Below, in pieces: positions 10,654 through 60,839 of a stretch of 64,000 bases of DNA. How positions within the stretch are numbered: position 1 is the stretch's first letter; every line of letters begins with the position of its first letter. A program made the translations under genes and the position numbers. Location: the NCBI RefSeq assembly GCF_003851545.1, contig NZ_BHVX01000006.1:186001-250000 (forward strand), read 5' to 3'. The notes under the pieces are model-generated. The model searched no databases, was not told the DNA's origin, and was given only the letters and a program-made list of their open reading frames with translations. The stretch is from Ralstonia sp. SET104. GTDB taxonomy: Bacteria; Pseudomonadota; Gammaproteobacteria; Burkholderiales; Burkholderiaceae.

Positions 10654-10678
10654 GGCAGTCCCTACGGAGTGGCGGTAT

Positions 10679-10695
10679 GACCGGACGATCCGGTC
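10679..10695 (-). promoter_or_regulatory. Hairpin between riboswitch and dadA
   Basis: A perfect hairpin, GACCGGA-CGA-TCCGGTC, lies just after the second glycine aptamer and about 25 nt before the dadA start. No T-run follows, so if it is part of the expression platform it more likely acts on translation than on termination. Confidence 0.4.
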
Positions 10696-10699
10696 GGCT

Positions 10700-10897
10700 C
10701 ACCCCATCTGTCTCGGGACCTGAGAGCTTGGGCATCAGCAGTGCTGGCGCCTTCCCCTTCGGTGGGCGTGCGCGCGGCACGCCTCTCTCCAGATTCGCAG
10801 TCGACGCCACAGTCCTTTTGCCTGAGAGTTTCCGGGGTGGTTGCTCCATCGGCGCCGGGCGTTGCGCGTGTGCGTTGGGCCCGGTCTCTCCTGCGGC
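10700..10897 (-). promoter_or_regulatory. Tandem glycine riboswitch
   Basis: Read on the minus strand, the first aptamer opens with GCAGGAGAGACC, followed by GGCGCCGATGGAGCAA and the conserved AAACTCTCAGGCAAAAGGAC. After a short linker, a second aptamer shows CTGGAGAGAG, CACCGAAGGGG and CTCTCAGGTC. This double-aptamer order with these conserved segments is the glycine riboswitch. It ends 47 nt before the dadA-like start and no other gene lies between, so it should control that gene. Usual targets are the gcv glycine-cleavage genes; a DadA-type target is less common. Confidence 0.92.
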
Positions 10898-11075
10898 GTG
10901 TTGCAGCTGTCGTTGGTGCGTCAGCCGCGCCTGCGTACTGCCCAGGTGGGCAGCGGGACCGAGTGTGTCACGAGTTGTGACGTTCGGCAAGTCGGGCGAT
11001 TGTGAATGCCAGATCCCTTGATCGGCATGGTCAGGGCATACTGCGCTCTGCATCGCTTCGCATCAGGCGGAGCGC

Positions 11076-12344: not shown

Positions 12345-12418
12345 GCGGCCGGTGCAGTAGCGAGCATCGCCTTTGCGCTACCATGCGCCCACAACGATCC
12401 CGTTACCTCGATCCGACC

Positions 12419-14200
12419 ATGGACGCTCCAGCGAACCGGACAACGTACACGCAATCGCCGGCACGAGGTTCTGAAGCGCTGGTGGGGGCGTCTAGCGAAA
12501 CGTACCGGCGGCAACGCAGGACGCTGTTTGGCGTGGGCATCAGCGCGTCGGGGGCGCTTGGCGCATGTGCCGTCATCTCGGTGATGGCGCATGCGCGGAC
12601 GATCGCGCTTGCCGGATGTCTGGGCGCGATTGTCGTCGTCTGGATTGCGTTGCTGGCCGTGCATCGGCGTGTCCTGCAACCTGCTCCTGAGCCTGCGCTG
12701 GAAGATGGGGAATCCAGCACTGCAAGCAACGCAGCAAACCGCGCAGAAACGATGTTGCTTGCGACGATGGGCCGCGAGATCCGCGCGCCACTCTGGGCAA
12801 TGCTCGGCAACCTTGAGTTGCTCGACCGCACGCCATTGGATGATGCGCAGCGCCATCATTTGCAGATGGCCAGGGCCTCCGGCGAGGCATTGCGCGGCCT
12901 CATCAACGACATCCAGGACGTATCGCAGATGGAAGCTGGCCGGCTGTCGATCGCGCACATGTCTTTCGACTTGGCATCGCTGGCGCGCAGCGTTGGCGCC
13001 CGGTGCGCCCCGGCCGCACAGGCAAAGCAGCTCGATTTCAATTGCATGGTCGCTCCCGATCTGGCGCCGCGCTATGTCGGCGATCCGGCTCGGTTGCAGC
13101 AAGTCATGACCCATCTGGTCAGGAATGCGATTGAGTCCACCGAGCGCGGCGAGGTTGTTCTCGAGGTGTACCTGGAGGACGCGCGGCGGCGCGATCGGAT
13201 TTCCATCGGTGTGATTGACTCCGGTGCGGGCTTGACCGAGGAACAGCAGCGGAACACCCTCACGCCATTTGCGCAGGAAGGCGCATCGAATGCCTTGATT
13301 TCTGGCAGCGCGCGCCTGAGGCTTGCCCTCTGCAAGGGCCTTGTTCGCCTGATGGGCGGCAACATAGCGTGCACGTCGACGCCCGGGGTGGGCAGCACGT
13401 TCGTTATGCAACTGGAGCTTGAGGTCGATGCCGATGCCAATGTGCAAGGCATTGAGGATGCCTTGGGTGCCGCAGTTCATGATGGCGAAGGCGCCACCGC
13501 CATTGATGTGCTCGTGGTCGATGATCACTCCGCCAACCGTGATCTCCTGCGTGATCAGCTCACCGCGTTGGGTTATGCGGCCGATGTCGCGCAAGGTGGC
13601 ATGTCGGCTCTTCGCATGCTGAGCAGAAAGCGTTACCACATGCTGCTGACCGCGCTGAACATGCCAGGCATGGATGGCTACGCGCTCGCACGGTTCGTTC
13701 GTGACCGCTACGCTGGCATGCCCATCATTGGCCTGACTGCGCACGTCACCGAACACGAACGGGCCATGTGCCGGGACGTGGGCATCGACGATGTGCTGCT
13801 CAATCCGGCATCGCTCGAAGCCATCGGCAGCGCTGTTCGGCGCTTCGCTGATCGCGCTGAAAAGATGAAGCTCGGGGCATCTGCCGTGGACCCAACCATG
13901 GGGCCGTTGCCGGCATCGCTTCGGCAAACGCTGATGACAACGCTCGAAGCATCGGTGCGCAAGATCGAAGCCGCGATCAGGCAGCAGAACAACGCGCTGG
14001 TTAGCGGAGAGCTTCACTCAATCAAAGGGGCGTTTGCGATGGTGCATGAAGCTGCCGTCGTTGAGCTTTGCAAGCGCCTCGAAACGCTGGCGAAGGCGGG
14101 CGACCTGGAAGCCGCAGCAGCAGATGTCGGCAAGATCGTGCCGATGGCGCGCGACGCACTCGCGCGCCGTGCTCAATCACCTGCGGATACGGGCGAGTAA
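12419..14200 (+). CDS. Hybrid histidine kinase relative without acceptor His and Asp, HPt intact
   Basis: A 593-residue inner-membrane protein with the order: two TM helices (about 36-57 and 62-82), HisKA-like dimerisation helix, HATPase, receiver, HPt. The H-box reads ATMGREIRAPL: the phospho-acceptor His of the SHEIRTPL family motif is Arg119. The ATPase keeps an N-box asparagine (RNAIEST) and DSGAGL, but the G2 box is GSARLRLAL instead of GTGLGL. The receiver keeps VVDD but the acceptor Asp before NMPGMDG is Ala412 (TALNMPG). The HPt histidine, His533 in LHSIKG, is intact. It resembles RcsD, a phosphotransfer protein with dead kinase parts. The RcsB-like regulator at 15628-16371 is the natural partner. 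It overlaps no other gene and begins 75 bp after chrA. Confidence 0.85.
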   Translation: MDAPANRTTYTQSPARGSEALVGASSETYRRQRRTLFGVGISASGALGACAVISVMAHARTIALAGCLGAIVVVWIALLAVHRRVLQPAPEPALEDGESSTASNAANRAETMLLATMGREIRAPLWAMLGNLELLDRTPLDDAQRHHLQMARASGEALRGLINDIQDVSQMEAGRLSIAHMSFDLASLARSVGARCAPAAQAKQLDFNCMVAPDLAPRYVGDPARLQQVMTHLVRNAIESTERGEVVLEVYLEDARRRDRISIGVIDSGAGLTEEQQRNTLTPFAQEGASNALISGSARLRLALCKGLVRLMGGNIACTSTPGVGSTFVMQLELEVDADANVQGIEDALGAAVHDGEGATAIDVLVVDDHSANRDLLRDQLTALGYAADVAQGGMSALRMLSRKRYHMLLTALNMPGMDGYALARFVRDRYAGMPIIGLTAHVTEHERAMCRDVGIDDVLLNPASLEAIGSAVRRFADRAEKMKLGASAVDPTMGPLPASLRQTLMTTLEASVRKIEAAIRQQNNALVSGELHSIKGAFAMVHEAAVVELCKRLETLAKAGDLEAAAADVGKIVPMARDALARRAQSPADTGE

Positions 14201-14217
14201 GCCCACTCAGTCCGTGC

Positions 14218-15504
14218 TCAGCGGGCCACGACGCGGGTCTTGCCCGATTCGATCGCATCGGCCACAAAGAACGGTACGTTCAGCCTCCATTGCCCCTGCT
14301 TGACTGGCGCCTCGTATTGGATTGCCGGGCTTTCCGCCTCCACCAGTTCAATCACCTGGTGCGCACCGTCCGGCCGTGTCGATTGTCCGGCAATGGCCGA
14401 ATAGCCTGCATTGCTGCCGACGTGAAAATGATCGGTCTTCCAGCGCACCGGCGGGTGAACGGGAAAAGGGCGGGCACCGTGGAATCCGAATAGCGCGTCA
14501 TGGTTGAGGATGCTTTGCCGCACCGTTGGCCAAAGCACGACGCGCAGGAATTGCTGATCCGTGAAGCGTGCCGTTCCTTGATAGTTGGCGACAAATGTCT
14601 TGATGCGCGGCGTAATCGGGGGCGTCACGCCAGCGCAGCCGCCCCACAAGCCAGCCAGTAACAACTCGGTGTGGGTGAAGTAATCGCGCATGTGATGGAA
14701 GACGCAATCGCTGGCGAGCCATTCGTCCACCGCCGTGACTTCACGCTCCGACAGCAGCGAATCCGCGTCACGGACCAGGAAGCGGTCGACACCTGGGTCA
14801 TCCATCACAAAAAACCGCCACAGTGTGGCGGGAATGGCGCGCCGTTCGTCCTGGTCCATCGTCAAGATTTCTGCACCGGCATCGCGCAGCCTGCGCTGCA
14901 CGTGTTCCGGCACGCTGCTGTCCAGATAGAAGCGGCATGTCCATGCGGGATACAGATCGTGCGCGACCCGCGCATTCATGACGGCGGTCTCGCAATAGCG
15001 CGGTTGCGCGCCAAACAGGCTGAACGCAATGATGTTGCGGCCGCGCGCGTTCGGGTCGAAGCGCGGCGGCGTGGCCGGTAAAGGCCAGTGCTCACCCGTG
15101 CGGCACAGAGCGTCTGCCTGCGCCAGCGAGCGATGACCGTATTGGCGTAGCTCATCCTCCTTGCCGAGCCAGCCGCAGACTTCCGCAAGGCCGTCCAACC
15201 AGGTGCGGGAGGCGCGTGCGCGCTGAGCTGCTGGCGCTGCTTCAATCTGCCGATAGATGCGATAGGCGTCTTCGTACTTGCCCGTTCGCATCAGACACAG
15301 CGCGTAGTCGCCCAGGATGGTCATGTTGCCGGGCGTGTATTCAAGCGCGCGTTGAGCGAGGGCGAGGGCCGTAGCGTGGTCGGCCGCCGCCATTGCGGCA
15401 ACAAACTGTGTGGCCAGCGCCTGGAGCTGCGCCTGTGCCACATTGCGGCTCGCGTTGGCGGCAGGGCGTCTGGGTGCAGGAGGAAGTCGTCGGAGTTTGG
15501 ACAT
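14218..15504 (-). CDS. TPR protein with glycosyltransferase-like domain
   Basis: A 428-residue protein of unknown function. Residues about 20-130 are Ala-rich helical repeats of TPR type (ALALAQRALEYTPGNMTILGDYALCLMRTGKYEDAYRIYRQ). Residues about 150-400 look like a nucleotide-sugar-type fold: NIIAFSLFGAQPRYCETAVMNA near the start and a DxD-like motif in FLVRDADSLLSEREV, followed by HHMRDYF and SDQQ-like TDQQFL. No signal peptide or TM helix is seen, so it should be cytoplasmic. It lies between the two phosphorelay genes and upstream of the secretion operon. It could modify the adhesin or a surface polysaccharide; this is inferred from position only. Confidence 0.6.
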   Translation of the reverse strand: MSKLRRLPPAPRRPAANASRNVAQAQLQALATQFVAAMAAADHATALALAQRALEYTPGNMTILGDYALCLMRTGKYEDAYRIYRQIEAAPAAQRARASRTWLDGLAEVCGWLGKEDELRQYGHRSLAQADALCRTGEHWPLPATPPRFDPNARGRNIIAFSLFGAQPRYCETAVMNARVAHDLYPAWTCRFYLDSSVPEHVQRRLRDAGAEILTMDQDERRAIPATLWRFFVMDDPGVDRFLVRDADSLLSEREVTAVDEWLASDCVFHHMRDYFTHTELLLAGLWGGCAGVTPPITPRIKTFVANYQGTARFTDQQFLRVVLWPTVRQSILNHDALFGFHGARPFPVHPPVRWKTDHFHVGSNAGYSAIAGQSTRPDGAHQVIELVEAESPAIQYEAPVKQGQWRLNVPFFVADAIESGKTRVVAR

Positions 15505-15627
15505 GGCGTGACAGAGATCCGAGGGCTGCGGACAATGTCGGCCGCGAGCAGGCGCGCGCTGCCAACGGAGCAGCGAACACCTCTGATGAAATAACGATCG
15601 AACGCCCGAACATCGGGCAATAGGCGG

Positions 15628-16371
15628 TCAGGCCGGCTTTACACTGCGCGGCATTTTCCTGGCGGCTGGCGCCGGGTCCGGAGCGTTCAGACTTGCCGGG
15701 GCTGACTCGGGCGTGCCTCGTGACGCGGCAAGAGAAACCCCCATCGAATACTTAACGAGATCCGTGTCGTTATCGATGCCGAGCTTCTTCATGGCGTTCG
15801 ACTTCTGCGAGCTGATCGTCTGTTTGCTACGCCGCAGTTGTGCCGCAATTTCATTCACGCTCAGCCCCGACACAAACAACCGGACGACTTCCTCTTCACG
15901 CGTCGTCAGCGCGTTGCTGGTCGTGCTGGCAGATTCCACGTGAACCTGCCACGCGATCTCGGAAATCGACGGCGAAAAATAGCGGCCCGAAGCGTAGGCG
16001 CCGTGGATGGCCGTCAAGACGTGGTCCGTGCTATCCGACTTGCTCAGGATGCATTGAATGCCGAGCTTCAGAAGCGCGCGGATCACGCCGGGGTTGTCCA
16101 TCATCGTCAGCACGACGATGCGGGTGTCGGGGTAGCGTCTGCGCAGGAATGAGAACAGCGTGATGCCATCACCGAATTCCCCACCGGGCATTGCGTAATC
16201 CGACACGAGCACATCGCACGGGTGTTCATCGAGCGCGGCGATGAGCTTGGTTGAGTTCAGGGCGGTTGCGACCACCTTGACGCTTTTGTGATTGGCCAGG
16301 AACGCCTGAATGCCGTTGATAACGGTCGGGTGGTCGTCCGCAATGATGACCTGAATCGAGAATTGATCCAT
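15628..16371 (-). CDS. RcsB-like response regulator (NarL/FixJ type)
   Basis: A 247-residue regulator. The receiver (residues 6-125) has the acidic pair Asp12-Asp13, the phospho-acceptor Asp58 in VLVSDYAMPG, and LTMMDNP. The stretch MPGGEFGDGITL and the C-terminal LTTREEEVVRLFVSGLSVNEIA...SKQTISSQKSNAMKKLG closely follow RcsB, including its unusual TISSQK recognition helix. The C-terminal 35 residues are a Pro/Ala-rich tail absent from RcsB. RcsB acts on capsule, motility and adhesion genes. Phosphate could come from the HPt protein at 12419-14200; a true kinase is not visible in the window. The start at 16371 is set by comparison; an open extension runs to 16407. Confidence 0.86.
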   Translation of the reverse strand: MDQFSIQVIIADDHPTVINGIQAFLANHKSVKVVATALNSTKLIAALDEHPCDVLVSDYAMPGGEFGDGITLFSFLRRRYPDTRIVVLTMMDNPGVIRALLKLGIQCILSKSDSTDHVLTAIHGAYASGRYFSPSISEIAWQVHVESASTTSNALTTREEEVVRLFVSGLSVNEIAAQLRRSKQTISSQKSNAMKKLGIDNDTDLVKYSMGVSLAASRGTPESAPASLNAPDPAPAARKMPRSVKPA

Positions 16372-16927
16372 TTGAGTATGTGTCCAATGTTCAGGCATTC
16401 CAACCACAACCCCCGGGGCAATGCCTCCCTTCGGTTCCGGCCCCTTGATTGAAAGGGCGGCGTCAGAAGCGGTTGTAGACGTCTTCGTTCCCGTCTGCCA
16501 ATAGAAGGCACTTTAGTTCCATCACGCGTCGTACGCCATGGATCTCAAATGGAATGGGATCGTACTGGTACGAAATTTCTCCATGATAGCGACCCGCTTT
16601 GTGGCGGGTAGGGCCTTTATTCGCCCCTGGACGGCAGCGCTACGTTGCATCGATTGATTTTCATCGATCTGTCCGCGCACTTCGCATCGTTTTTAGTACT
16701 TGTCTGGTGCTGAATGCCTAGGGGTCGCATATCCCGTATCTGGCGATTTTCAGAAAATCACAACCGTTTCGTAGCTCATCAGATGGCCTGAGTTGCTGGC
16801 TTGATTCCAAACGGTTCGTACTCAATCAGGCAGCAGCGTTTCGTGGCCATCTGCCTACATCAATCTTTTGCCTGTCGCGCACCACCGCACCTCAACGCCA
16901 TACGCGATCGGCCCATTGGTTCAGATC
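16372..16927. other. Intergenic control region of the secretion operon
   Basis: This 556-bp region is more AT-rich than its neighbours and has no convincing gene. It holds the palindromic site at 16558-16577 and a copy of CTCAATCAG at 16821-16829, 99 bp before the ABC-protein start; both motifs recur in front of the adhesin gene. The regulator 15628-16371 reads away from it on the other strand. Confidence 0.6.
16558..16577. promoter_or_regulatory. Shared palindrome-like site (secretion operon)
   Basis: It contains CGTAC-TG-GTACG at 16561-16572. ATCGTACTGGT recurs upstream of the adhesin (22971-22981), and the 12-mer TGGTACGAAATT (16566-16577) recurs upstream of terC (30608-30619). This suggests one DNA-binding regulator, identity unknown. 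Confidence 0.42.
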
Positions 16928-19354: not shown

Positions 19355-20598
19355 GCTTCAATATCTTCAGGAAATGGCTGCCGCGAAAAGCCAAATTGTC
19401 GGCGGGTGACGCCGCGTTCATGAACGACGTGCAGGAGTCGCTGCTCACGCAGTCGACGCCCGGCTCGATGCTGGTGATGTACGTGATTGGCGCGCTCCTC
19501 GTGGTTGGCCTCGGCTGGGCAAATTTCGCCCGTGTTGAAGAGGTGACCAACGGCGAAGGCACGATCATCTCGAAGAGCCGCGAGCAGGTCATCCAAAGCC
19601 TGGAGGGCGGGATTCTCGAGCAGCTTGACGTGCGCGAGGGCGACATCGTCAAGAAAGGGCAGGTGCTCGCCAAGATCGACCCGACCCGCGCCGAGACGAG
19701 CTACCGCGAGGCATGGTCCAAGCAGATCGGCCTGAAAGCGACCATCGCGCGCCTGCGTGCCGAAGCGTACAGTCAGCCGCTCGTTTTTCCTGACGACGTC
19801 AAGGGCGTGCCCGAGGTGGTCAAGCAGGAAACGCTGGCCTACAACGCGCGCCGCCGGGCGCTGGAAGACAGCGTTGCCGCGCTGGAGAAGAGCCACGCGC
19901 TGTCGATGCGCGAGATTGGCATGGCAGAGCCGCTGTCGGCCAAGGGGTTGATCTCCGAGGTCGAGTTGCTGCGCATGCGCCGTCAAGCCAACGAACTGCG
20001 TTCGCAGATCGTCGATCGCCGCAACCGCTATCAGGCCGATGCCAACTCCGAGCTGATCAAGCTGGAACTGGAACTGGCGCAGACCAGCGAAACGGTCGTC
20101 GGACGCGCAGATGTGCTGCAACGTACGACCGTCGTCGCGCCTGTGTATGGCACCGTGAAGAATATCCGCGTGAACACAATCGGCGGTGTGATCCAGCCGG
20201 GCGAGCACATCATGGAAATCGTGCCGCTGGAAGACCAACTGCTGGTCGAGGCCCGCATCAAGCCGTCGGACGTGGCATTCCTGCACCCCGGCCAGCCAGC
20301 CACCGTCAAGGTCACCGCGTACGACTTCGGCATTTATGGCGGTCTCAAAGGCAAGGTCGAGCACATCAGCCCGGATACGCTGAAGGACGACCAAAAGGCC
20401 GCTGCCGGGCGCCCTGACGCGACGTACTACCGCGTCCTGGTGTTGACCGAATCGAGCGCTTTGCAGGCCGGCGGCAAAACGCTGCCGATCTTGCCGGGCA
20501 TGGTGGCAACCGTCGATATCCGCACGGGCGAGAAGACGATTCTCGACTACCTGCTCAAGCCGATCTTCAAGGCGCGTGAAGCGTTCCGGGAGCGTTGA
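19351..20598 (+). CDS. HlyD-family periplasmic adaptor (LapC-like)
   Basis: A 415-residue membrane-fusion protein. One TM helix lies at about 36-56 (MLVMYVIGALLVVGLGWANF), followed by the first lipoyl half VIQSLEGGILEQLDVREGDIVKKGQVLAKIDP, a helical hairpin (about 110-250), and the second lipoyl half plus beta-barrel (VVAPVYGTVKNI, then VARIKPSD-like VEARIKPSD). It links the ABC protein to the outer-membrane channel. It overlaps the ABC gene by 4 bp and ends 2 bp before the TolC gene, so the three are one operon. Confidence 0.92.
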   Translation: MSFNIFRKWLPRKAKLSAGDAAFMNDVQESLLTQSTPGSMLVMYVIGALLVVGLGWANFARVEEVTNGEGTIISKSREQVIQSLEGGILEQLDVREGDIVKKGQVLAKIDPTRAETSYREAWSKQIGLKATIARLRAEAYSQPLVFPDDVKGVPEVVKQETLAYNARRRALEDSVAALEKSHALSMREIGMAEPLSAKGLISEVELLRMRRQANELRSQIVDRRNRYQADANSELIKLELELAQTSETVVGRADVLQRTTVVAPVYGTVKNIRVNTIGGVIQPGEHIMEIVPLEDQLLVEARIKPSDVAFLHPGQPATVKVTAYDFGIYGGLKGKVEHISPDTLKDDQKAAAGRPDATYYRVLVLTESSALQAGGKTLPILPGMVATVDIRTGEKTILDYLLKPIFKAREAFRER

Positions 20599-20600
20599 TC

Positions 20601-22808
20601 ATGACCGACCGGAACCGAATCCCACCATCTGCGATACCGGTGCCCAAGTCGGCATTTCGGCCGATCGCCTGGGTTGTCTCATCGCTGTTTGCGCTCGCGC
20701 CGCTGGCGTTTGCAGAAGAGGCGCGCGCGCAGGGCGCGGTCGGCCTGCGTTCGCATGTGCCGTTTACCGAATGGGCTGGTCAGACGTCGGCTGCTGCGGC
20801 GCAAGTCAAGGCGGACGAGCAGAAGCGCGCGATCGAGACTGACACAACTGAAGGCCAGGCGCGCCTGGCGGCGCAGGCCACGCGTGCTGAAGCGGCGCGG
20901 CAGCTCCAGCGCGCCGAAGAACAGGCCAGGCTGGTGCGTGAAGCGCAGGCGCGGGAGGTCTCGCGTATGGCTGAGGAAGCTGCACGGCTGGAGGCCGCGC
21001 GCGCAGAAGCGCAGGCAAAACAACGGGCAGACGAAGAGCGTGCCGCAGCCGAGAAGCGCCGTCAGCAAGAGCAGGCACGTGTCGCTGAAGCAGCACGCGC
21101 TGAGGCCATCGCGAAACAGCAGGCGGAAGCGGAACGCGTAGCCGCTGCTGAAGCGCGCGCGCAGGAGGCCGACGCGCAACGCCGCGAGACGGAGGCTCGC
21201 GCGGCGGCAGCGCGCGAATTCCAGGCGCGCGCCGAAGCTGAGCGCACCGCCGAAGCCAGGGCCGAAGCGGCACGCCAGAACCAACGCGAGCATCTGCCAG
21301 CACGGCGTTCGGACGATGGTTTGGTCGAATTCAAGGCCGTCGTTCCCCCGGGCACGGTGCCCGCCGCACCGGAAGATGCGCCTGCCGTCGCGCCGTCGGC
21401 CAAACCGCAACCTTCACCGGCGTCTGTGGCGCGTCTGCCCGAGATGCCTGCACCATCCGCCGCAAGCGAAGGCCCCAAAGCGCGCCACGGCAAAGCGAGC
21501 GCGGTGCCCGCCAAGGGCACGCCTGGGCAGTTCGCACGGTGGCTGGAGGCGCAATCTGATGACTACGGCTCGGGCCCGACGCCATCGCCTGAAAAGCTGC
21601 GCGAGATCTTCTGGCGGGCGGTTCAAATGGCCGCCGAACGCAGCCCCGAAGTGCGACAGGCTTACGCCAGCTACCAGGCCGCCAATGCGGATGTGGCAGA
21701 AGCCAAGGGCCAGCGCTGGCCCCAGGTGGATATCGGCTCTCAATCGCCAGGACTCAACTTCGGCCCCGGCGGCAATGGTGACGGTAGCGGCTCGGGCAAC
21801 CCCCTGTCGGTCAACGTCACGACCAATCTCTTCGATTGGGGGCGCACGAAGAACACGATCGGTAGCCGCGAGCACCTTTCCACTGCAGCCAATCGGGCCT
21901 ATGACGCTGCCATGGAAAAGGTCGGCTTCGATGTTTCCTCAACGCTGATCGAGTTGGGCAAGCAACGCAACATCGTCGATCTGAGCCAGCAGTTTGTCGA
22001 CCGCATGGCAACGCTGGTCAAGATGCTGAGCGAGATCGTGGAGGTTGACCGCGGCCGTGGCAGTGAGCTGACGCAGGCAAAAACGCGGCTACTGCAGGCA
22101 GAAGCCTCGCGGGACACGGCCGAAGCCCGCGCGCGCGACGCAGAACTCACGCTGCGCAAACTGGTGGGCGACGAGGCGGTGATGATTCCGCGCACGCGGG
22201 CGTGGTCTGTCGAGCCTGGCAACTTGGAAAAACTGTTGTCGCTGGTGGGCGCGCATCCGAGTCTGCAGCAAGCGAAGGCCGAGGCGGACGCTGCGGACAT
22301 GAGCGCCAAGGCGGTCAAGGCATCGGCTCTGCCGCAGGTCAACTGGGTGGTGAGCGCGGGCATGAGCAAAGACGCGCTAGGCCGCCGGCAACCATGGCAA
22401 ACCATGCTGAACCTGAATTGGGGGGCATTCCGCGGCGGTTCCGCCAAGGCTGCGACCGAAGCCGCAGGCGCGCGCGCCGAAGCGAGCTGGCAGCGCTTGG
22501 AACAGCAACGCCGCGATCTCGAATATGCGGTGCGCACGGCCGACCAGGATGCGAACACCATGCTGCAACGTGCCGATCTGTACCAAGGCTTGTCGGCTGA
22601 GACCGACCAGGTGCGCAAAGCGTTTTTCGAGCAGTGGCACCACCTTGGCCGGCGCACGCTGCTTGATGTGCTGACCGCGGAAAACGAGCACTACGGCAAC
22701 CGCGTCGCAGAAGTCACCAACCGCTTCGACGCCTACCTCGCTGTGTTCCGCGAGCACTACTCGGCGGGCGCTTTGGCCCAATGGCTGAGAAACGAACACG
22801 GTCAGTGA
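20601..22808 (+). CDS. TolC-family outer-membrane channel with long coiled-coil N-terminus
   Basis: A 735-residue protein, far longer than the usual 450-500 residues. A signal-like segment (about 22-42, IAWVVSSLFALAPLAFA) is followed by an Ala/Glu/Arg/Gln-rich stretch of about 170 residues (about 60-235) that should form a single long charged helix or coiled coil. A Pro/Ala linker (about 245-315) leads to the TolC part (about 325-725), with SPEVRQAYASYQAANADVAEAKGQRWPQ and TNLFDWGRT typical of outer-membrane efflux proteins. It is the last gene of the operon and is followed by a terminator. The extra segment may span the periplasm or reach peptidoglycan; nothing in the sequence proves this. 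Confidence 0.87.
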   Translation: MTDRNRIPPSAIPVPKSAFRPIAWVVSSLFALAPLAFAEEARAQGAVGLRSHVPFTEWAGQTSAAAAQVKADEQKRAIETDTTEGQARLAAQATRAEAARQLQRAEEQARLVREAQAREVSRMAEEAARLEAARAEAQAKQRADEERAAAEKRRQQEQARVAEAARAEAIAKQQAEAERVAAAEARAQEADAQRRETEARAAAAREFQARAEAERTAEARAEAARQNQREHLPARRSDDGLVEFKAVVPPGTVPAAPEDAPAVAPSAKPQPSPASVARLPEMPAPSAASEGPKARHGKASAVPAKGTPGQFARWLEAQSDDYGSGPTPSPEKLREIFWRAVQMAAERSPEVRQAYASYQAANADVAEAKGQRWPQVDIGSQSPGLNFGPGGNGDGSGSGNPLSVNVTTNLFDWGRTKNTIGSREHLSTAANRAYDAAMEKVGFDVSSTLIELGKQRNIVDLSQQFVDRMATLVKMLSEIVEVDRGRGSELTQAKTRLLQAEASRDTAEARARDAELTLRKLVGDEAVMIPRTRAWSVEPGNLEKLLSLVGAHPSLQQAKAEADAADMSAKAVKASALPQVNWVVSAGMSKDALGRRQPWQTMLNLNWGAFRGGSAKAATEAAGARAEASWQRLEQQRRDLEYAVRTADQDANTMLQRADLYQGLSAETDQVRKAFFEQWHHLGRRTLLDVLTAENEHYGNRVAEVTNRFDAYLAVFREHYSAGALAQWLRNEHGQ

Positions 22809-54153: not shown

Positions 54154-54420
54154 GAGTGCTCCGACGTAATTCCCTTCCCCAAGGAGCGAGGGTATGTTTG
54201 ACTGCGCACGGCCAGTTCCGGAAACCTCAGGAACGTTGAGAACGAATTTATGCCCTTAGGGGCGGCGGGAAAATAGCTTCCGCCGTGCTGAAGAGACTTA
54301 AAGATGTGCATAGAATCCGGTGCGACGCACATGGGAAGAACACTGTGCACAATTTGACAAGCCGCTGATTGTAGTAGTAGTCCAGATCTCGAGCGGTGAC
54401 ATCTTGGGTGGATTCCCGAC

Positions 54421-54720
54421 AATGTAGCCCGAACCGCTGTCCGTCATCCATTCGATTTCCGATGGGGCTTTCGGAACATTGCCGAAACGCCGCTCGACGG
54501 CTGCCAGCATCACGTCGCGCACGACATCGCCCCTGTAGCCACCGGTCGTCGCTACCCAGCTCGTCGCCTCGCGGTCGCAGCAGTCCACAGCGAACGTCGC
54601 TCGCAGCGGCTCGTCCCGTGGCAACGATGGCGAGCGCGCAATCAACTTTTTTGCCCGGCCGTACCCGTAGTTTAAGTGGGTGACTGCGTCCGGTGATTCA
54701 GGGGGATGTTCCACTGGGCG
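54421..54720 (-). pseudogene. IS3-family (IS2 group) transposase OrfB remnant
   Basis: The frame contains [20 protein letters not shown], then [24 protein letters not shown], and ends [13 protein letters not shown]. This is the middle of an IS2-type OrfB DDE domain (the usual TDNGSGYI is TDSGSGYI). The N-terminal part and everything after GSGYI are missing, and the flanks at either end are unrelated. It is a decayed insertion-sequence fragment at the edge of the foreign block. Confidence 0.85.
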
Positions 54721-55184
54721 CGTCTTCCGACGGCGGATCAGCGTGCCGCGTCCACCAGTTTCCTTACGCCCATCACTTGGTATTCGTTCTCAAATCGCCA
54801 TAGCTAATGGTGATATATTTTTTTGTTCTTTAATTAAATAACTCCAATGTGATATGGATTTGTGTGCAATAAATATTGCACAATAGCTCGCCAAAAAATT
54901 ATATCGACTTGGGTAGTCTAGCCCGCAAAGCTGATTTATCAAGGCGACCTTGAAATGCCGGGGATTTATATTAACGTCAAGGGGTTGCTTGCTCAAAAGA
55001 AAAGGCGACCTTGCTCGGTCGCCTTGTTCCATGCGTGGAGGATGCTGCTAAGACAGTAAATCACTTTCAGGAAGAGGCCTTGTTACAGCAAGACATCTTC
55101 GTCCCTCCTTAGCGTACAGTCTGATTTTGGTCGTTTTCCCGCCGAAGTCAAGGGTTCTGTGCGCAGTGAATTTGGGAGTCGATC
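54721..55184. other. AT-rich stretch before the transposition operon
   Basis: From about 54790 to 54990 the GC content falls well below the surroundings. A perfect hairpin-type repeat GTGCAAT-AAAT-ATTGCAC lies at 54864-54881, CAAGGCGACCTTG at 54938-54950, and the strong hairpin at 55002-55025. I could not identify transposon end repeats with confidence. No gene is supported; an 80-codon minus frame at 54790-55032 starts inside the hairpin. Confidence 0.5.
55002..55025 (-). terminator. Rho-independent terminator reading leftwards
   Basis: AAGGCGACC (55002-55010) pairs with GGTCGCCTT (55017-55025). On the minus strand it is followed by TTTTCTTTT, so it terminates transcription coming from the right. 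No minus-strand gene lies immediately to its right now; the next is bluB at 60177. Confidence 0.7.
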
Positions 55185-55865
55185 ATGCGCACTCAACCAT
55201 CCCCGCGAGGCTGGCGGGATAGTGTGAATTCGAGCAAGCTGCGCAGGCACAACTACGCAGCTAATCTTTGGATTTTCTTTTCCAATAAGAACCAGGCGCT
55301 GTATCGCATCGAGGGTGACGTGCCCTTCATGCATTGCGTTCTTCTTGAGGGAAACCCCAATTTTGTGCGTTATCGGCCTCCAGCTCTTCCGAACCCAGGG
55401 GAAGCGCCTGGCAATGTTTCCGGTATTAGCTTTTCGATTGCCGAAGACGTGGAGGCTAGGCAGACGTGGTTCTGCTACCGTCGGAACGAACCTCCCTGGG
55501 GTGAGCAATGGTCAGCGGCCTTCAGCGAGCTCAATCAGCGAGCAAGCGAACGCCAAGCTGCATGCTGCATTGTGACGGTTCGTGAGTTGGAGCAGCAGCG
55601 CTATTTGTTCGACAACTGGCTGGTGCTGTCCCGTGCTATGACGGCCGCGCGGTCTTTGTCACGTGAGACCGAGGCGGAGTCGCTGGCGGCACTCCTCTCC
55701 CGCACACGCTCGTTCGAGTTGACCATCGCGTTGCATCAACCTGGCTGTGATCCCGCCATCATGCTGGCGGTGATTGCCCGCGAGCTGCAGCTAGGCCGAC
55801 TAACGGCTGATCTGACAACCACGTTGCTGAGCGATGCATCGATCCTGCATGCGGAGGGCTTATGA
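55185..55865 (+). CDS. TnsA-like protein, nuclease motif not evident
   Basis: A 226-residue protein, first gene of the module; GGGAG lies 6 bp before the ATG. Size, position and the order beta-strand pattern (ALYRIEGDVPFMHCVLLEGNPNFVRYRPPALP) match TnsA, the endonuclease that cuts the 5' ends in Tn7. The Glu of the first motif could be that in RIEGD, but the expected Asp and ExK of the second motif are not seen where FSIAEDVEARQTWFCYRRNEP stands. It may be inactive or a structural partner of the transposase. Identity rests mostly on context. Confidence 0.55.
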   Translation: MRTQPSPRGWRDSVNSSKLRRHNYAANLWIFFSNKNQALYRIEGDVPFMHCVLLEGNPNFVRYRPPALPNPGEAPGNVSGISFSIAEDVEARQTWFCYRRNEPPWGEQWSAAFSELNQRASERQAACCIVTVRELEQQRYLFDNWLVLSRAMTAARSLSRETEAESLAALLSRTRSFELTIALHQPGCDPAIMLAVIARELQLGRLTADLTTTLLSDASILHAEGL

Positions 55866-57856
55866 GCCGAGGCTGCACGCGTACACGCATCCCCGCGACC
55901 TTCGGCCGACCGGAAAGCTGGCCACGGCCCGCAATCCTTCAACTGAGCGAGCAGGATCAGGAGATCTATCGACGTCGAGAACGCGCGCTACGGATGTACG
56001 CCGAGCGGCGTGATTTCCCGACGATCCAATCCGAGGTGGGCCTGGGGCGCAGGGAGGTTTTCCGGTTGCTGCAACGGTTCACCGCTCCCAGTCCCACCGG
56101 CGGCATCTACGGTTTGTTCGGTCTGCTTCCAAGGCTGAGGATTCGGGTATATCAACGTAGGAAACCTCTTCGCCTGACTCCTGGCTCTTCTTCCGGTTAC
56201 GCCGGCGCCATGGGGAGCTTGCTGGAACAGCACGCAGAGGTGGAGGACATCTTGTACAGGCTGCTTCTCGGAACTGACGAGCGCGCCTTGGAGCGCCGCC
56301 CGACGTTTCGGACGGTGCATGCTGGTTGGCTTGAAGAGCTTCGTCGGCTCGGCCTAGACGAAACAGACTGGCCGTTTTGCTGCGGCGATCAGGGCTACTG
56401 CACGCTGATTCGCTACTGCAAGCAGCTGATTGCGCAGAACGCCGATCGTGGCGTAAAGATGCGATACGGGAAGGCTGCGGCCGACCGCCTAGCGAAAGTA
56501 GGGAGGGGCATCCCCCCTTTGATTCAGCCGCTACGTCCGGGCACCTTTGCGATCTTGGATTACGGCAAAGCCGATACGGCGTCCTGCTTTACGTTCAAGA
56601 CCCCGGAGGGCAAGGAGTTAGCGCAAGTTTTGCCGCGTTGGTACATTGCCGTGTTGGTGGACGAATACACCTCCGGCACCTGGAGCGCGTTCAACACCAT
56701 GGAGGTCGACCCTAGTGCGGACAGTGTATTGGAGGCGTTGGATCGCGCAATTAGGCCTGAGACCTATTCCGAGAAGGCGACACAAAGCGGAGCGGCTGAG
56801 CTTCCAACGCATATCCATGAGTTGCTGCCGTCGTTTGGGTTCTCCGGCGTCTCCGTTCTAAAGCTCGACAACGCACGATGCAATAGAGCGTTCGAGGTTG
56901 TTGATCGCATCATCTTCACCTTGGGATGTGCGGTGAACTTTGGACCGTATCGAACGTGGGTGCGCCGCGACGTTGTAGAACATGTCATTGGACGCCTTTC
57001 CGCGACCGGAGCCAAGCGCCTTCGGTCTAGCTACGGTACAGGACCGATGGATCCCCTCCGAGGGGACGCCGCCAAAGAAGCGATCAGCCTACATCTGGAC
57101 TACCGCGAAGTAGAGCGACTACTGCGCAATTGCTGCAGAGCGCACAACCGGAATGCCAGTGAGCGCCTTCACTGGTCTTCGCCTACCGAATACATTTCAC
57201 GCGCACTGGCCGATCCCGCCTCTGGCGTCTTCCCCAATCCACTGCCGCAGATCGCCATAAAGAATTCGGACCTTCTCGACCACATTGTCGAATGTACCGT
57301 ACGCGGTAGTTTGAAGAAGGGTGAGCGACCCTATGTGCGATGGGGGCGATGCCGATACACCAATCCTGTACTTGCTAGCTCCTGGCAGTTGCTCGGGAAA
57401 TCGATACTGCTATACATCAAGAGATACGACGCACGACTGGCAACCGCCATATTGCCGAAGACTGGAGAAAGCCTCGGCTTGCTTATCCCTGAGCGAGCGT
57501 GGCGCGAGTATGCCATTTCATTGCGCATGCGGCAGTTGATCAACCGAGCAGGGCTGCGGCTCGCGGCACACGAGCGCGAAGACCCACTGGAAGTATGGCA
57601 AAAGGAATGGGCGGCAACTCGCCAGACGAGAACAGGAGCAAGATCGCGGAAGCGCTCATCCAGAGACGCGATATGGTTCGCCCGCGAGCAACGCTTGCGG
57701 GAAGCTCATGCCGGCACCGGCCCACACGATTCCGAGGCTGGAGATGGTTATCAGGAGCCAAATGGCGTTGACGTTGGTGAATTGCGGGGCGGCTCAGGGC
57801 TTGACCCCTTCGGTCTGGACGAGGTTCCTGACCTCACCAAGCGAGGCAGGCCATGA
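55862..57856 (+). CDS. TnsB/TniA-like DDE transposase
   Basis: A 664-residue Mu/TnsB-type transposase. N-terminal HTH part: SEQDQEIYRRRERALRMYAERRDFPTIQSEVGLGRREVFRLLQRF. The rve core has Asp233 (FAILDYGKAD), Asp336 (LKLDNARCN) and Glu373 (RRDVVEHVIGRL), with 37-residue D-E spacing. The Mu-type C-terminal barrel has RWGRCRYTNPVLASSW. The tail (about 580-664) is charged and probably binds the ATPase. It catalyses strand transfer. Confidence 0.9.
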   Translation: MSRGCTRTRIPATFGRPESWPRPAILQLSEQDQEIYRRRERALRMYAERRDFPTIQSEVGLGRREVFRLLQRFTAPSPTGGIYGLFGLLPRLRIRVYQRRKPLRLTPGSSSGYAGAMGSLLEQHAEVEDILYRLLLGTDERALERRPTFRTVHAGWLEELRRLGLDETDWPFCCGDQGYCTLIRYCKQLIAQNADRGVKMRYGKAAADRLAKVGRGIPPLIQPLRPGTFAILDYGKADTASCFTFKTPEGKELAQVLPRWYIAVLVDEYTSGTWSAFNTMEVDPSADSVLEALDRAIRPETYSEKATQSGAAELPTHIHELLPSFGFSGVSVLKLDNARCNRAFEVVDRIIFTLGCAVNFGPYRTWVRRDVVEHVIGRLSATGAKRLRSSYGTGPMDPLRGDAAKEAISLHLDYREVERLLRNCCRAHNRNASERLHWSSPTEYISRALADPASGVFPNPLPQIAIKNSDLLDHIVECTVRGSLKKGERPYVRWGRCRYTNPVLASSWQLLGKSILLYIKRYDARLATAILPKTGESLGLLIPERAWREYAISLRMRQLINRAGLRLAAHEREDPLEVWQKEWAATRQTRTGARSRKRSSRDAIWFAREQRLREAHAGTGPHDSEAGDGYQEPNGVDVGELRGGSGLDPFGLDEVPDLTKRGRP

Positions 57857-58884
57857 TGGTCGAACCCCTGGTAATCGAGCAGGCGACCATCGCCGGTTGG
57901 CAAGGGGTATCAAAGAGTGTGCTCGTGGGAGATACGCCTCTTCGGCGCGAGCTGTTCTTTGAACACCCAGCGATGAGGTATCAAACTCAAGTCGTCACAC
58001 CAATGGCGAAGGAGATGTATCGAAACTTTAAAGCAGCCATCCTGCTTGGCGAACAAGGACTTTACATCTCCGGGGAGCGGAAAGATGGTCGCTCCTGCGC
58101 CCTCCGTATATGCATGAAATTGCTGGAGTCAGAGTATCCACAGATCGGAGCCTACTACCATTGCGCGAGCGCGTCAGGTGTGCCCAATCAGAAGGCTGCC
58201 TGGCAGGCCATGCTTAGCAGCACGGAGCATGCTTTCCTATCTGGTGATGTCATTCCATTGCGCGAACGCCTCGTAACGAAAATCGTCGACGATCTCCGTA
58301 GGCGTGGCACGGGCTACACCGCCATCTGGTGCGTAGACAACGCGCAAGAAATTCAAGAGCGAGAACTCGAAGCCCTCTTCGATCTTCAGGATCGCCTGTG
58401 GGCTAGAGGCGTTGTTCTGCTAACAGCAATGGTTGCGGACAATCAGCGGGACATACGTACCTTTGAGGCCCCCCCGTACGATCGATCGCTGCTCCGGCAC
58501 TTCTTCTGCAAGCACTTTGGGCTAAGGGGGGTAACTACCGCACATGACATCGAGGTGATTCTCGAAGCGTTCGACGCATCGGAGTTCCCCGAAGGGAGCG
58601 ATGTTCGTTGGACCGAATTCTTCTTCCCGCAAGCGTATGCGAATGGCTTTCGACTGGCAGAACAAACGTTGCATGTGTTCGAAACGCTCTCACAGTGCTT
58701 TCCTAATGCAGGGCAAAGTAAGCCCACGCTAGGCGTGATATTCAACGCCATTCGCTGGACGCTGCTGCGCAGTGCCCAGCTGGACGCGCCCGAGTTCAAT
58801 TTGCAGCCGGAAGATTGGAAGAGAGCCGTTCAGTATGCAGTGCTTCGTGGAAACTATACGCCGCCGCGGCTGCTGATGAAATGA
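57853..58884 (+). CDS. TnsC/TniB-like ATPase with altered nucleotide motifs
   Basis: A 343-residue protein in the TnsC position. The Walker A region reads SGERKDGRSCAL: the invariant Lys of GxxxxGK[ST] is Arg80. The Walker B region reads IWCVDNAQ: the catalytic Glu after Asp162 is Asn163. The rest (RELEALFDLQDRLWARGVVLLTAMVADN; RHFFCKHFGLRG) follows the TniB plan with a helical C-terminal domain. It should link target selection by TniQ to the transposase. Whether it hydrolyses ATP is doubtful. Confidence 0.78.
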   Translation: MMVEPLVIEQATIAGWQGVSKSVLVGDTPLRRELFFEHPAMRYQTQVVTPMAKEMYRNFKAAILLGEQGLYISGERKDGRSCALRICMKLLESEYPQIGAYYHCASASGVPNQKAAWQAMLSSTEHAFLSGDVIPLRERLVTKIVDDLRRRGTGYTAIWCVDNAQEIQERELEALFDLQDRLWARGVVLLTAMVADNQRDIRTFEAPPYDRSLLRHFFCKHFGLRGVTTAHDIEVILEAFDASEFPEGSDVRWTEFFFPQAYANGFRLAEQTLHVFETLSQCFPNAGQSKPTLGVIFNAIRWTLLRSAQLDAPEFNLQPEDWKRAVQYAVLRGNYTPPRLLMK

Positions 58885-60155
58885 CCATTCTTTCCGTGGT
58901 TGCAGGCGCGGATCTCGCTCCGCTGCCTTTCGAGTCAACCGAGTCGGTGCTCTTGAGGTTGGCCCATATGAATGCATTGAATGCGCGTGATGCTCGTGCG
59001 GAAGGTTTATGCACCACGTACTGGTCGCCGATTGTGCTGACGGAGGCAGGGCAATCCAGGCTTGCCCAACTAACCAACTGGCAACTCGATAAGCGAGAGG
59101 AGCACCTGTACTTCCAGTTGCAGCAAACGGGACTACTGTCCACGAAGCTTCGTTTCTGCGCGCGATGTGCCTCACACGGCTACCACTCTTACCTATTCCA
59201 GCTCTCACCCATAGCGGCTTGCCCTCTACATGGGGAGCCACTAGTGCAGTCGTGCCCATGCTGCGGTGTCTCAGTGGGAGAATGTGCGATAACCGAATGG
59301 CTCTTCAAAACGCCCTATCGTTGCGCGTATTGCCGTCGTCCGCTGGGACTTCAGGTTCCCACACCGGCAACGTACTATCAGCTAGAAGCGCAGCGATCTA
59401 TGCTTCTAGAGGCGTTCGCCCCTTACTGGAATTGGGCAAAGCGGCTTATGGCCGAACGTCGAACCATTCCTCAGTTATTTCAGGCGAACTGTGGGCGCGC
59501 TCTGCGAGGTGAGCTGGCGAGCCGCCGTGCCAGTGTGTTCTGCACCCTGGTTCCGGCCCCGTTCCTTGAGGCTTCCCCGGTGTTGACAGTGCTGACGTGG
59601 CGACAAAAAGTATCGCTGTACCAGTTAACATCAAGAAAAGTTGAACGGCGGGTCATTGGCGTCTATCAAGCAACGCTTCGCTTGCTGCAACGCTGGATTC
59701 TGGCGCACTGCCAGCATTCACCGAGGGAAGACTATCTGAGGGAGTGTCTGATGGAACCCAAGCCGCTCAACTACGGTGACATTGACTGTCGTGGGGTTCC
59801 TCGTGAGGAGTGCGCCTATAAACTGCTGCGATACGCAATCGAGCGAGACTACCGCGACTGTTCAGTTCATGCTGATGTCCGGACCGCGATGCCGTGGGGA
59901 TTCTTCCGAATTACAGAACCTTCCCTTCAAAGCCTGCCTCGGCTACCGCTTCGGGCGATTTTCCTTGCGATGTATGCGGAAGGCTATCTTCGGCTAAACG
60001 GGCGAGACTCCTTTTCTCTTGCTCTGGAAGGTGTGCGCTCGGATGCGGAGCTTCTAATGTTTGCCGGCGAAGCCCGCACATGCCGTTGGGGGTTCGTGGC
60101 GTTCCCGCCTGTTCCTGGGATGCCAACGACTCCCTTTCATCGGCGTGGATATTGA
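58881..60155 (+). CDS. tniQ: TniQ/TnsD-type target-site protein
   Basis: A 424-residue TniQ protein. The N-terminal ESVLLRLAHMNALNAR helix region is followed by a zinc finger CARCASHGYHSYLFQLSPIAACPLHG..LVQSCPCCG and a second CAYCRRPLG knuckle. The C-terminal 230 residues are unlike known TnsD DNA-binding parts but long enough for one. TniQ/TnsD proteins choose the insertion site. It ends 21 bp from the bluB stop, so a target at the end of bluB is a reasonable guess. Confidence 0.87.
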   Translation: MTILSVVAGADLAPLPFESTESVLLRLAHMNALNARDARAEGLCTTYWSPIVLTEAGQSRLAQLTNWQLDKREEHLYFQLQQTGLLSTKLRFCARCASHGYHSYLFQLSPIAACPLHGEPLVQSCPCCGVSVGECAITEWLFKTPYRCAYCRRPLGLQVPTPATYYQLEAQRSMLLEAFAPYWNWAKRLMAERRTIPQLFQANCGRALRGELASRRASVFCTLVPAPFLEASPVLTVLTWRQKVSLYQLTSRKVERRVIGVYQATLRLLQRWILAHCQHSPREDYLRECLMEPKPLNYGDIDCRGVPREECAYKLLRYAIERDYRDCSVHADVRTAMPWGFFRITEPSLQSLPRLPLRAIFLAMYAEGYLRLNGRDSFSLALEGVRSDAELLMFAGEARTCRWGFVAFPPVPGMPTTPFHRRGY

Positions 60156-60176
60156 GAGCCACGACGCGTGCATCAT

Positions 60177-60839
60177 CTAAGAGCGCGCGGTGCCGTGATC
60201 ACTCCAGCTGTTTTCGAACAGCATTTCGTTGAGTGATCGCCGTTTTTCCCAGCCCTTCTGTTCCAACATCGGCTTCTCGTAAAAGCTGTCGACATGACCG
60301 AGGCAGAGGACGGCAACTGGCCGGGCGCCGGGCGGCAGTCGTAGCAGTCGGCCGAGCTGTTCAGGGTCGAATAAGGAAACCCAACCCATACCGACCCCTT
60401 CCGCACGCGCGGCAAGCCAGATGTTCTGGATGGCACAGGCCACCGAGGCGAGATCCATCTCCGGCATGGTGCGTCGGCCAAAGATATGCCGCTCGCGTCC
60501 ATCCATGAGGGCGGCCACCAGAACTTCCCCGCAGTCCAGGATGCCCTCGACCTTGAGTCGCATGAACTCGTCCTGGCGCTCGCCCAGTGCAGCCGCGGTG
60601 CGCTCGCGTTCGGCTTCGACCAGCGCATGGACTTGCGCTCTCAGGCACCTGTCAGTGATGCGAATGAAGCGCCAGGGCTGCATGAAGCCGACGCTGGGGG
60701 CGAGATGCGCCGCGTGCAGCAAGCGTTCGAGCAATGCCGGGTCGAGCGGGTCTGACCGGAAGTGGCGCATGTCGCGGCGCTCCCGGATGGCGCGATAGAC
60801 GGCGGCAATTTCATCTTCGCTGTATCGATACGGGTTCAT
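60177..60839 (-). CDS. bluB: BluB, 5,6-dimethylbenzimidazole synthase
   Basis: A 220-residue flavin-destructase of the nitroreductase fold: RRDMRHFRSDPLD, HLAPSVGFMQPWRFI, the stretch MPEMDLASVACAIQNIWLAARAEGVGMGWVS and VLCLGHVDSFYEKPMLEQKGWEKR are BluB signatures. It converts reduced FMN to DMB, the lower ligand of cobalamin. It overlaps the cobB/cbiA gene by ATGA. It is the last gene of the cobalamin operon and has no terminator directly behind it. Confidence 0.94.
   Translation of the reverse strand: MNPYRYSEDEIAAVYRAIRERRDMRHFRSDPLDPALLERLLHAAHLAPSVGFMQPWRFIRITDRCLRAQVHALVEAERERTAAALGERQDEFMRLKVEGILDCGEVLVAALMDGRERHIFGRRTMPEMDLASVACAIQNIWLAARAEGVGMGWVSLFDPEQLGRLLRLPPGARPVAVLCLGHVDSFYEKPMLEQKGWEKRRSLNEMLFENSWSDHGTARS

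What the first reader, a model, noticed from the sequence alone, without database searches (positions are those of the whole stretch)
55185..60155. Compact Tn7-like module with altered TnsA and TnsC active sites
TnsB keeps its full DDE triad (Asp233, Asp336, Glu373) and TniQ its zinc finger. The TnsC-like protein has Arg80 for the Walker A Lys and Asn163 for the Walker B Glu, and the TnsA-like protein shows no clear PD-ExK motif. In known Tn7 systems both are needed for cut-and-paste and ATP-gated targeting. Either this is a family that works by another rule (replicative, ATP-binding only) or it is decaying; the intact overlaps and frames argue against simple decay.
Basis: partly seen in the sequence, partly recalled or inferred. 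Interest (0 to 1): 0.75.

Follow-up and report, generated by a model that had tools for sequence, protein, structure and literature searches.

The report
Tn7-like transposon with dead-looking ATPase regulator
This is a jumping-gene module related to Tn7 whose DNA-joining enzyme looks intact but whose regulator has lost its fuel-burning site, a loss shared by a branch of relatives, so the branch probably moves by a different rule.

Summary
Window 55185-60155 holds four overlapping genes: tnsA-like, tnsB-like, tnsC-like and tniQ. TnsB keeps D233/D336/E373. TnsC has Arg80 and Asn163 where 51 of 51 and 50 of 51 intact relatives have Lys and Glu. TnsA has no PD-ExK Lys.

The change is not private to this copy. 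On a TnsB tree of 51 rows the window falls in a clade of 10 (support 100/99). All 9 readable TnsC there lack the Walker A Lys and Walker B Glu. Two other rows lost them apart from this clade. Losses concentrate at the ATP site; most other conserved residues stay, and tnsC is under purifying selection (dN/dS 0.19-0.23, rough). TnsB's triad is intact in 10 of 10. So this is a TnsC pseudo-ATPase clade of a Burkholderiaceae Tn7-like family, not one decayed copy.

TnsA has a clear E-D-ExK set in only 5 of 74 loci. A sister 75-kb element without it shows 5-bp duplications at 3 of 3 examined sites.

A 2024 review reports non-canonical Walker motifs in some type V-K CAST TnsC; here the loss is outside CAST and clade-wide. 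No end was found on the window's tniQ side; this copy may be stranded. The mechanism is inferred.

The parts
55185..55865 (+). tnsA-like gene, 226 aa; TnsA-like by alignment and weakly by fold, no PD-ExK Asp/Lys
   Evidence: AF2 model (mean pLDDT 67.8) has Tn7 TnsA 1t0f/1f1z as its best PDB hits at E 4e-3 to 2e-2, none under 0.001
55862..57856 (+). tnsB-like DDE transposase, 664 aa, D233/D336/E373; C-terminal DPFGL tail
57853..58884 (+). tnsC-like AAA+ protein, 343 aa, G-E-R-K-D-G-R80-S and V-D162-N163; predicted ATPase-dead
58881..60155 (+). tniQ, 424 aa, zinc-finger cysteines kept
55122..55154 (+). operator-like dyad TGATTTTGG...CCGAAGTCAAGGG ending 30 bp before tnsA; possible TnsB/regulator site (function inferred)
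   Evidence: no consensus RNA fold
55002..55025 (.). terminator-like hairpin between the left border zone and tnsA
   Evidence: similar hairpins seen by eye at this place in L068, L071, L020
54155..54914 (.). left border zone: congeneric DNA mostly stops at 54154 (end of the acyl-CoA synthetase gene); IS3-type fragments at 54413-54715; exact end not found
60156..60204 (.). right junction: a bluB-like nitroreductase-family gene (- strand) ends 21 bp after the tniQ stop; no inverted-repeat end found here

Best explanation
This is the core of a divergent Burkholderiaceae branch of Tn7-like transposons in which TnsC has become a conserved pseudo-ATPase. Shown: TnsB active-site residues and the TniQ zinc finger are kept; TnsC keeps the AAA+ fold (prediction) but the clade has lost Walker A Lys and Walker B Glu in every readable member; TnsA lacks nuclease residues. 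Inferred: TniQ picks the target; TnsC serves as a nucleotide-independent (or permanently locked) bridge between TniQ and the TnsB tail; TnsB makes 3' nicks and joins the ends; without TnsA nuclease the product is replicative (Shapiro intermediate/cointegrate), resolved by host or neighbouring recombination; TnsA stays as a structural or end-binding part. The window copy is either compact and cargo-free or has lost its tniQ-side end.
For: Clade of 10 on the TnsB tree, UFboot/SH-aLRT 100/99; 9 of 9 readable TnsC dead. Column test over 62 distinct TnsC (51 intact, 9 clade, 2 others): K80 51/51 -> 0/9, Thr/Ser81 51/51 -> 2/9, D162 51/51 -> 2/9, E163 50/51 -> 0/9, R216 51/51 -> 1/9, while H38, P39, T49, L121, R139, L175, L182, P259, A261, L268, D311, W322, A325 stay 8-9/9. 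dN/dS of dead tnsC 0.19-0.23 in 3 pairs, against 0.12-0.19 in the 3 of 4 intact pairs with finite values. DDE kept in 10 of 10 clade members. AAA+/TnsC-like fold. TnsB C-tail DPFGL in 5 of 9 full-length clade TnsB, DRF[GR]L in 2 more. Only one TnsC of this family in the genome. R. soli copy (L020) lies in an interval absent from congener G005, beside dif. A sister element whose TnsA lacks the Lys has 5-bp duplications at 3 of 3 sites.
Against: No transposition of a dead-TnsC element is shown. A search for terminal repeats plus matching 5-bp duplications worked on 2 of 2 controls but gave nothing above the controls' background in the 9 dead-clade loci tried, window included. The sister element shown to have moved has an intact TnsC. 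Window and L068 keep Ser81 and Asp162, so some nucleotide binding is possible. dS is near saturation, so dN/dS is rough, and dead tnsC looks somewhat less constrained than intact tnsC. Some residues away from the ATP site also drift in the clade. L016 and L169 lack the DPFGL tail.
Confidence: 0.6

Rival explanations
1. ATP-binding-only switch: TnsC still binds nucleotide (Gly-rich loop, Ser81, Asp162) but cannot hydrolyse it, so it is locked in the DNA-bound, transposition-on state, as Tn7 Walker B mutants seem to be.
For: Window and L068 keep G79, Ser81 and D162. A Tn7 Walker B Glu mutant is hyperactive (PMC11406308 section 2.5).
Against: Lys80 is Arg; 7 of 9 clade members also lose D162 and Thr/Ser81, and 2 of 9 have Leu at 80. 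The same Walker B mutation severely compromised Tn6677, ShCAST and McCAST.
Confidence: 0.2
2. Decay: the window module is a stranded remnant and the altered residues are degeneration.
For: No tniQ-side end found; the bluB-like gene ends 21 bp after tniQ; IS3 fragments beside it; neighbouring DNA on both sides is not shared with congeners beyond the flanking genes.
Against: Four open overlapping frames; the same losses in 9 of 9 readable clade members, at 23-50% TnsC identity to the window where measured; purifying selection; DDE intact in 10 of 10. Stranding of this copy would not explain the clade.
Confidence: 0.12
3. A working ATPase is supplied in trans or mixes with the dead TnsC.
For: The same genome has a TniABQ-like locus; its TniB-like ORF shows a normal Walker B by eye.
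Against: Only one TnsC of this family in the genome; the other locus belongs to a different family; nothing suggests mixing.
Confidence: 0.05
4. Domesticated module with a non-transposition role (for example regulation or defence).
For: Compact, no cargo, no ends seen in the window; conserved frames.
Against: TnsB DDE is kept, and family members lie in varied contexts on chromosomes and plasmids; PADLOC finds only TniQ models for the four proteins.
Confidence: 0.06

Closest known systems
Tn7 (TnsABCD)
   Same: Gene order A-B-C-TniQ/TnsD (recalled for Tn7); DDE TnsB; TnsC-like fold and, weakly, TnsA-like fold
   Different: TnsC lacks Walker A Lys and Walker B Glu; TnsA lacks PD-ExK; no att gene recognised; Pfam's rve model does not detect TnsB
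Type V-K CAST TnsC with non-canonical Walker motifs (PMC11406308 section 2.5)
   Same: Natural TnsC without canonical Walker A and/or B; no working TnsA nuclease
   Different: No cas gene among the 9 flanking window ORFs given to Pfam; a tnsA-like gene is kept; Burkholderiaceae hosts; not compared with V-K TnsB on one tree here
Tn5053/Tn402 (TniABQ-R)
   Same: TniQ and AAA+ helper; replicative route expected without TnsA nuclease; recombinase genes near a third of relatives
   Different: tnsA-like gene present; no resolvase gene in or beside the window module
L021-type Cupriavidus element (75.2 kb; sister subfamily seen here)
   Same: Same family; TnsA without catalytic Lys; TnsB DDE kept
   Different: TnsC has GEGKT and DEAQ; large cargo; ends AGTC... 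and 5-bp duplications

Membership tests
Tn7-like transposon (broad sense) | TnsB/TniA-type DDE transposase with full triad | tested here: met
   D233/D336/E373; DDE in 10 of 10 clade members; PDB profile hit to PseTnsAB E 3e-4
Tn7-like transposon (broad sense) | TniQ-family target protein with zinc finger | tested here: met
   Pfam TniQ E 1e-4 (below its cut-off), PADLOC TniQ E 4e-6, cysteines conserved in the clade
Tn7-like transposon (broad sense) | AAA+ TnsC fold | tested here: met
Tn7-like transposon (broad sense) | TnsC ATPase motifs (Walker A Lys, Walker B Glu) | tested here: not met
   R80, N163; 0 of 9 clade members keep either. Also absent in some accepted V-K CAST members, so the filing rests on the other rows
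Tn7-like transposon (broad sense) | Inverted-repeat ends and 5-bp target duplication | tested here: inconclusive
   None found for the window or 8 other dead-clade loci; met at 3 of 3 examined sites of the sister element
Cut-and-paste Tn7 (sensu stricto) | TnsA PD-(D/E)xK nuclease | tested here: not met
   No Asp/Lys in window TnsA; clear full set in 5 of 74 loci
Tn5053/Tn402 | Own resolvase gene (tniR) in the module | tested here: not met
   No gene but the four in the module; no resolvase or recombinase Pfam hit in 9 flanking ORFs between 49634 and 63885; no tyrosine-recombinase hit in the 19-kb locus L031
CAST | Associated CRISPR effector | tested here: not met
   No cas family among 9 flanking ORFs (Pfam) and only TniQ models for the four proteins (PADLOC); CRISPR arrays were not searched for

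The most novel reading that the evidence does not exclude
A lineage of Tn7-like transposons that moves without ATP control: TnsC is a nucleotide-free scaffold between TniQ and TnsB, TnsA is a non-cutting structural part, insertion is replicative, and some members settle beside Xer/dif or tyrosine-recombinase sites whose recombinase could resolve the cointegrate.
Probability: 0.3. Interest if true: 0.78.

Novelty: new variant of a known kind. Interest (0 to 1): 0.62.

Why it matters
TnsC's ATP cycle is thought to help decide where and when Tn7-like elements insert. A natural clade that dropped the ATP site while keeping transposase residues, TniQ and the AAA+ fold makes a direct question testable: what does ATP do in Tn7-type target choice that a scaffold cannot? 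It extends a remark made for type V-K CAST to non-CRISPR elements, with separate losses and an intact sister for comparison. It also shows a TnsA-like protein kept after its nuclease residues are gone. None of the 8 TnsB proteins tested (window and 7 relatives) matches Pfam's rve model PF00665 at E <= 0.01, though L019 gives a sub-threshold rve_3 match, so surveys seeded with that model alone may miss the family.

Tried and rejected
Single-copy decay of tnsC: rejected as the cause of R80/N163, since the states recur across a clade.

A clean empty site for the window: 6 of 15 congeners matched the bluB-like region, and none of the 6 shares the window's sequence downstream of that gene. On the left, 10 of 15 congeners align across the acyl-CoA synthetase gene, 9 of them to 54154 and one to 54166; an eleventh (G011) aligned only over its last 393 bases; the other 4 gave only short partial matches. 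Downstream of that gene the congeners also differ from the window and partly from each other, so no empty site could be drawn.

Ends by TIR + 5-bp duplication: the right pair ranked first in 2 of 2 controls (score 23; next best 17-19); best scores in the window, L020, L068, L071, L016, L168, L169, L170, L171 were 19 or less, and three of them gave no pair at all. For L020 a repeat pair (5310 and 11041, 14 of 20 bases) has no matching duplication.

An RNA hairpin upstream of tnsA: no consensus fold.

Relatives by single-protein pattern scan of genome contigs: none; the alignment scan gave 6 loci. Viral contigs: none.

Papers: PMC11406308 passages and section 2.5 read; PMC10293859 and PMC8649781 passages only; others seen as search listings. 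Six searches of the held open-access library listed no paper that I recognised as describing this clade; most listed papers were not opened.

Rows dropped and limits: 74 of 76 loci had a TnsC hit, 67 of more than 250 aa; one search used 62 of these after dropping identical sequences and any of five named loci with split or partial TnsC (L092, L094, L101, L103, L105). L030 and L072 have no readable TnsC; L070, L051, L074 only pieces. In one search, 25 close relatives, near-duplicates or split copies were left out of the tree. L178 joins a long branch (L075) there, so its place is unsure. One search prints 4 fewest changes for the 'dead' label with unreadable rows as a label of their own, and 3 without them. 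In one search, loci held only as short copies were not scanned. Many of the 76 loci are close relatives, so counts over loci are not independent events. In one search, 131, L075, L093 and L103 have a Lys near the expected place but out of register; they are counted as lacking the motif.
Full report
WHAT IS THERE. Window 55185-60155 holds four collinear genes joined by ATGA overlaps: tnsA-like (226 aa), tnsB-like (664 aa), tnsC-like (343 aa) and tniQ (424 aa). The cited residues are right: TnsB D233, D336, E373; TnsC R80 in G-E-R-K-D-G-R-S and N163 in V-D-N-A-Q. G+C is 0.55-0.59 over the module against about 0.63 for most of the flanks. The host is in the genus of Ralstonia soli: same-genus genome G012 has a contig of the same length (724059) and match position as the record titled Ralstonia soli. 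The flanks hold an AMP-binding enzyme gene on the left and cobalamin genes on the right, beginning with a nitroreductase-family gene that I call bluB-like from context.

RELATIVES. tblastn finds the TnsB family on 65 plasmid records, 44 of them Paraburkholderia, Cupriavidus or Burkholderia, and a profile search finds it in 93 of 398 family-level genomes at E <= 1e-30. I took 76 loci, the window's included, and aligned TnsB, TnsC, TnsA and TniQ as far as readable. Some are TnsA-TnsB fusions by ORF length and alignment.

THE KEY TEST. On a TnsB tree of 51 rows the window joins L068 (Cupriavidus pampae), L020 (Ralstonia soli), L071 (Paraburkholderia sediminicola), L016 (a Burkholderia pyrrocinia plasmid), L072 (Caballeronia sordidicola), L168, L169, L170 and L171 (four genomes of P. 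sediminicola's genus) with support 100/99. Nine of these ten have a readable TnsC, and none of the nine keeps the Walker A Lys or the Walker B Glu: GERKDGRS/VDNAQ (window), GAPGEGRS/VDNAH (L068), GPPGCGRR/LHHIE (L020), GGRGAGRR/LYNAE (L016), GERGMGLK/IRNIE (L071), and similar in the rest. L072's contig ends before its TnsC. Two more rows, L177 and L178, lost them apart from this clade; L178's place is unsure because of a long branch.

THE OTHER PROTEINS. The DDE triad is intact in 10 of 10 clade TnsB; over 76 loci D233 is kept in 75, D336 in 75 and E373 in 74. A DPFGL tail at the TnsB C-terminus is present in 5 of 9 full-length clade TnsB (window, L068, L020, L071, L168), in changed form in L170 and L171, and absent in L016 and L169. 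A TnsB/MuA C-terminal tail that engages TnsC/MuB is described in PMC11406308, which adds that it is not conserved across Tn7-like elements (passage). TniQ keeps its cysteines in the clade (one short third TniQ-like ORF in L169 lacks them). TnsA is different: the full E..D..E-x-K set is clear in only 5 of 74 loci (L017, L018, L037, L069, L172), so loss of the nuclease Lys is widespread in the family and not special to this clade. The TnsA model is weak (mean pLDDT 67.8, low around the lost active site); its best PDB hits are Tn7 TnsA at E 4e-3 to 2e-2.

DOES THE FAMILY MOVE? A sister subfamily with intact TnsC and Lys-less TnsA is an element of 75.2 kb in NZ_CP043441.1, about 99.9% identical at different places in four genomes (longer in G130 and G289 through extra stretches). 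Three copies were followed to both ends: AGTCAGACGACGAGAAAA and (reverse complement) AGTCGAAAGACGCAAAAC, with 5-bp duplications gttga, gcatc and cagag; the fourth copy (G314) stops matching before that end. So Lys-less TnsA did not stop spread. For the dead-TnsC clade the evidence is weaker. In Ralstonia soli the module lies in an interval absent from congener G005, where the left flank (133 bp, 75% identity) and the dif site (29 bp, identical) lie about 24 bp apart. The R. soli tniQ ends 280 bp from dif. Of 15 congeners only G005 gave both flanks; G003 and G001 matched at dif but not on the left. I could not find ends with matching duplications in any of the 9 clade loci tried.

THE WINDOW COPY. 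On the left, congeneric DNA runs to 54154 in 9 of 15 congeners (54166 in one more), then come IS3-type fragments and an A+T-rich stretch. On the right, the bluB-like gene ends 21 bp after tniQ, leaving no room for a usual transposon end. This copy may be stranded even if its clade is active. The genome has one TnsC of this family, and a different TniABQ-like locus elsewhere.

HOW IT MOST LIKELY WORKS. Shown: intact transposase residues, conserved TniQ, predicted AAA+ fold without ATP-site residues, TnsA without nuclease residues. Inferred: TniQ-TnsC-TnsB bridging without an ATP cycle; TnsB-only joining, hence a Shapiro intermediate and a cointegrate, as described for elements without TnsA (PMC11406308 passages); resolution by homologous or site-specific recombination.

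WHAT IS KNOWN. Section 2.5 of PMC11406308 (read) says that some type V-K CAST TnsC lack the Walker B Glu and some lack a typical Walker A, and that a Tn7 Walker B Glu mutant is hyperactive while the same change severely compromised three CAST systems. PMC8649781 (passages) reports that TnsA-lacking transposons typically gain a resolvase. So the kind of change is known. What is new here, as far as my six searches show, is its occurrence outside CAST, fixed in a clade with intact sisters, with further separate losses. I therefore file it as a new variant of a known kind. Placing it among Tn7-like transposons rests on TnsB, TniQ and the TnsC fold, not on TnsC ATPase motifs, which are not met.

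Noticed in passing
28 of 76 loci, e.g. L020:881-2626, L068:265-4249, L035:11387-13120, L077:9097-11127, L168:672-2405: Tyrosine-recombinase/integrase-like genes or pieces lie near the TnsB gene in 28 of 76 loci (L069 only weakly). The five query proteins came from four of these loci and no background control was made. Target preference or cointegrate resolution are both possible; none near the window module.
   Followed up: partly
L020:11137, L077:1336, L078:1857, L030:13276: dif-like Xer sites near the element in four family loci.
   Followed up: partly
L130/L139 (NZ_CP043441.1 about 177119-252349) and G130, G289, G314: A 75.2-kb Tn7-like transposon, about 99.9% identical at different places in four Cupriavidus-group genomes, with 5-bp duplications at 3 of 3 examined sites.
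   Followed up: yes
window 55122-55154; L068:9161-9200, L071:10204-10243, L020:5762-5801 and others: Operator-like dyad upstream of tnsA in 14 of 76 loci by a strict pattern, against 49 of 6080 random windows of the same length; AAGTCAAGGG is invariant in the 13 of 14 that were aligned.
   Followed up: partly
L071:4092-4976, L071:11828-12595, L170:9111-9407: The L071/L168-L171 group shares an ORF convergent to tniQ (CN_hydrolase by Pfam in L071; the L170 one has no Pfam hit); L071, L170 and L171 share an AbiEi-type antitoxin relative, and L170 and L171 an HTH gene.
   Followed up: partly
G000:C13 about 19800-21500 (L192): A second, different TniABQ-like locus in the same genome: TniQ by Pfam, TniB-like ORF with a normal Walker B by eye.
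   Followed up: partly
L182 (Massilia horti) 10061-16840: One relative has two tnsC-like ORFs with normal Walker A loops and two tniQ-like ORFs, by eye.
   Followed up: no
L017 (Klebsiella grimontii plasmid pNY3A): A relative with a complete TnsA PD-ExK set sits beside nucleotidyltransferase, ThiF, Mov34 and SAVED genes that look like a CBASS-type cargo.
   Followed up: no
window 54413-54715: IS3-type fragments; the 54413-54613 piece also matches one other place in G000 and two each in G003 and G012.
   Followed up: no
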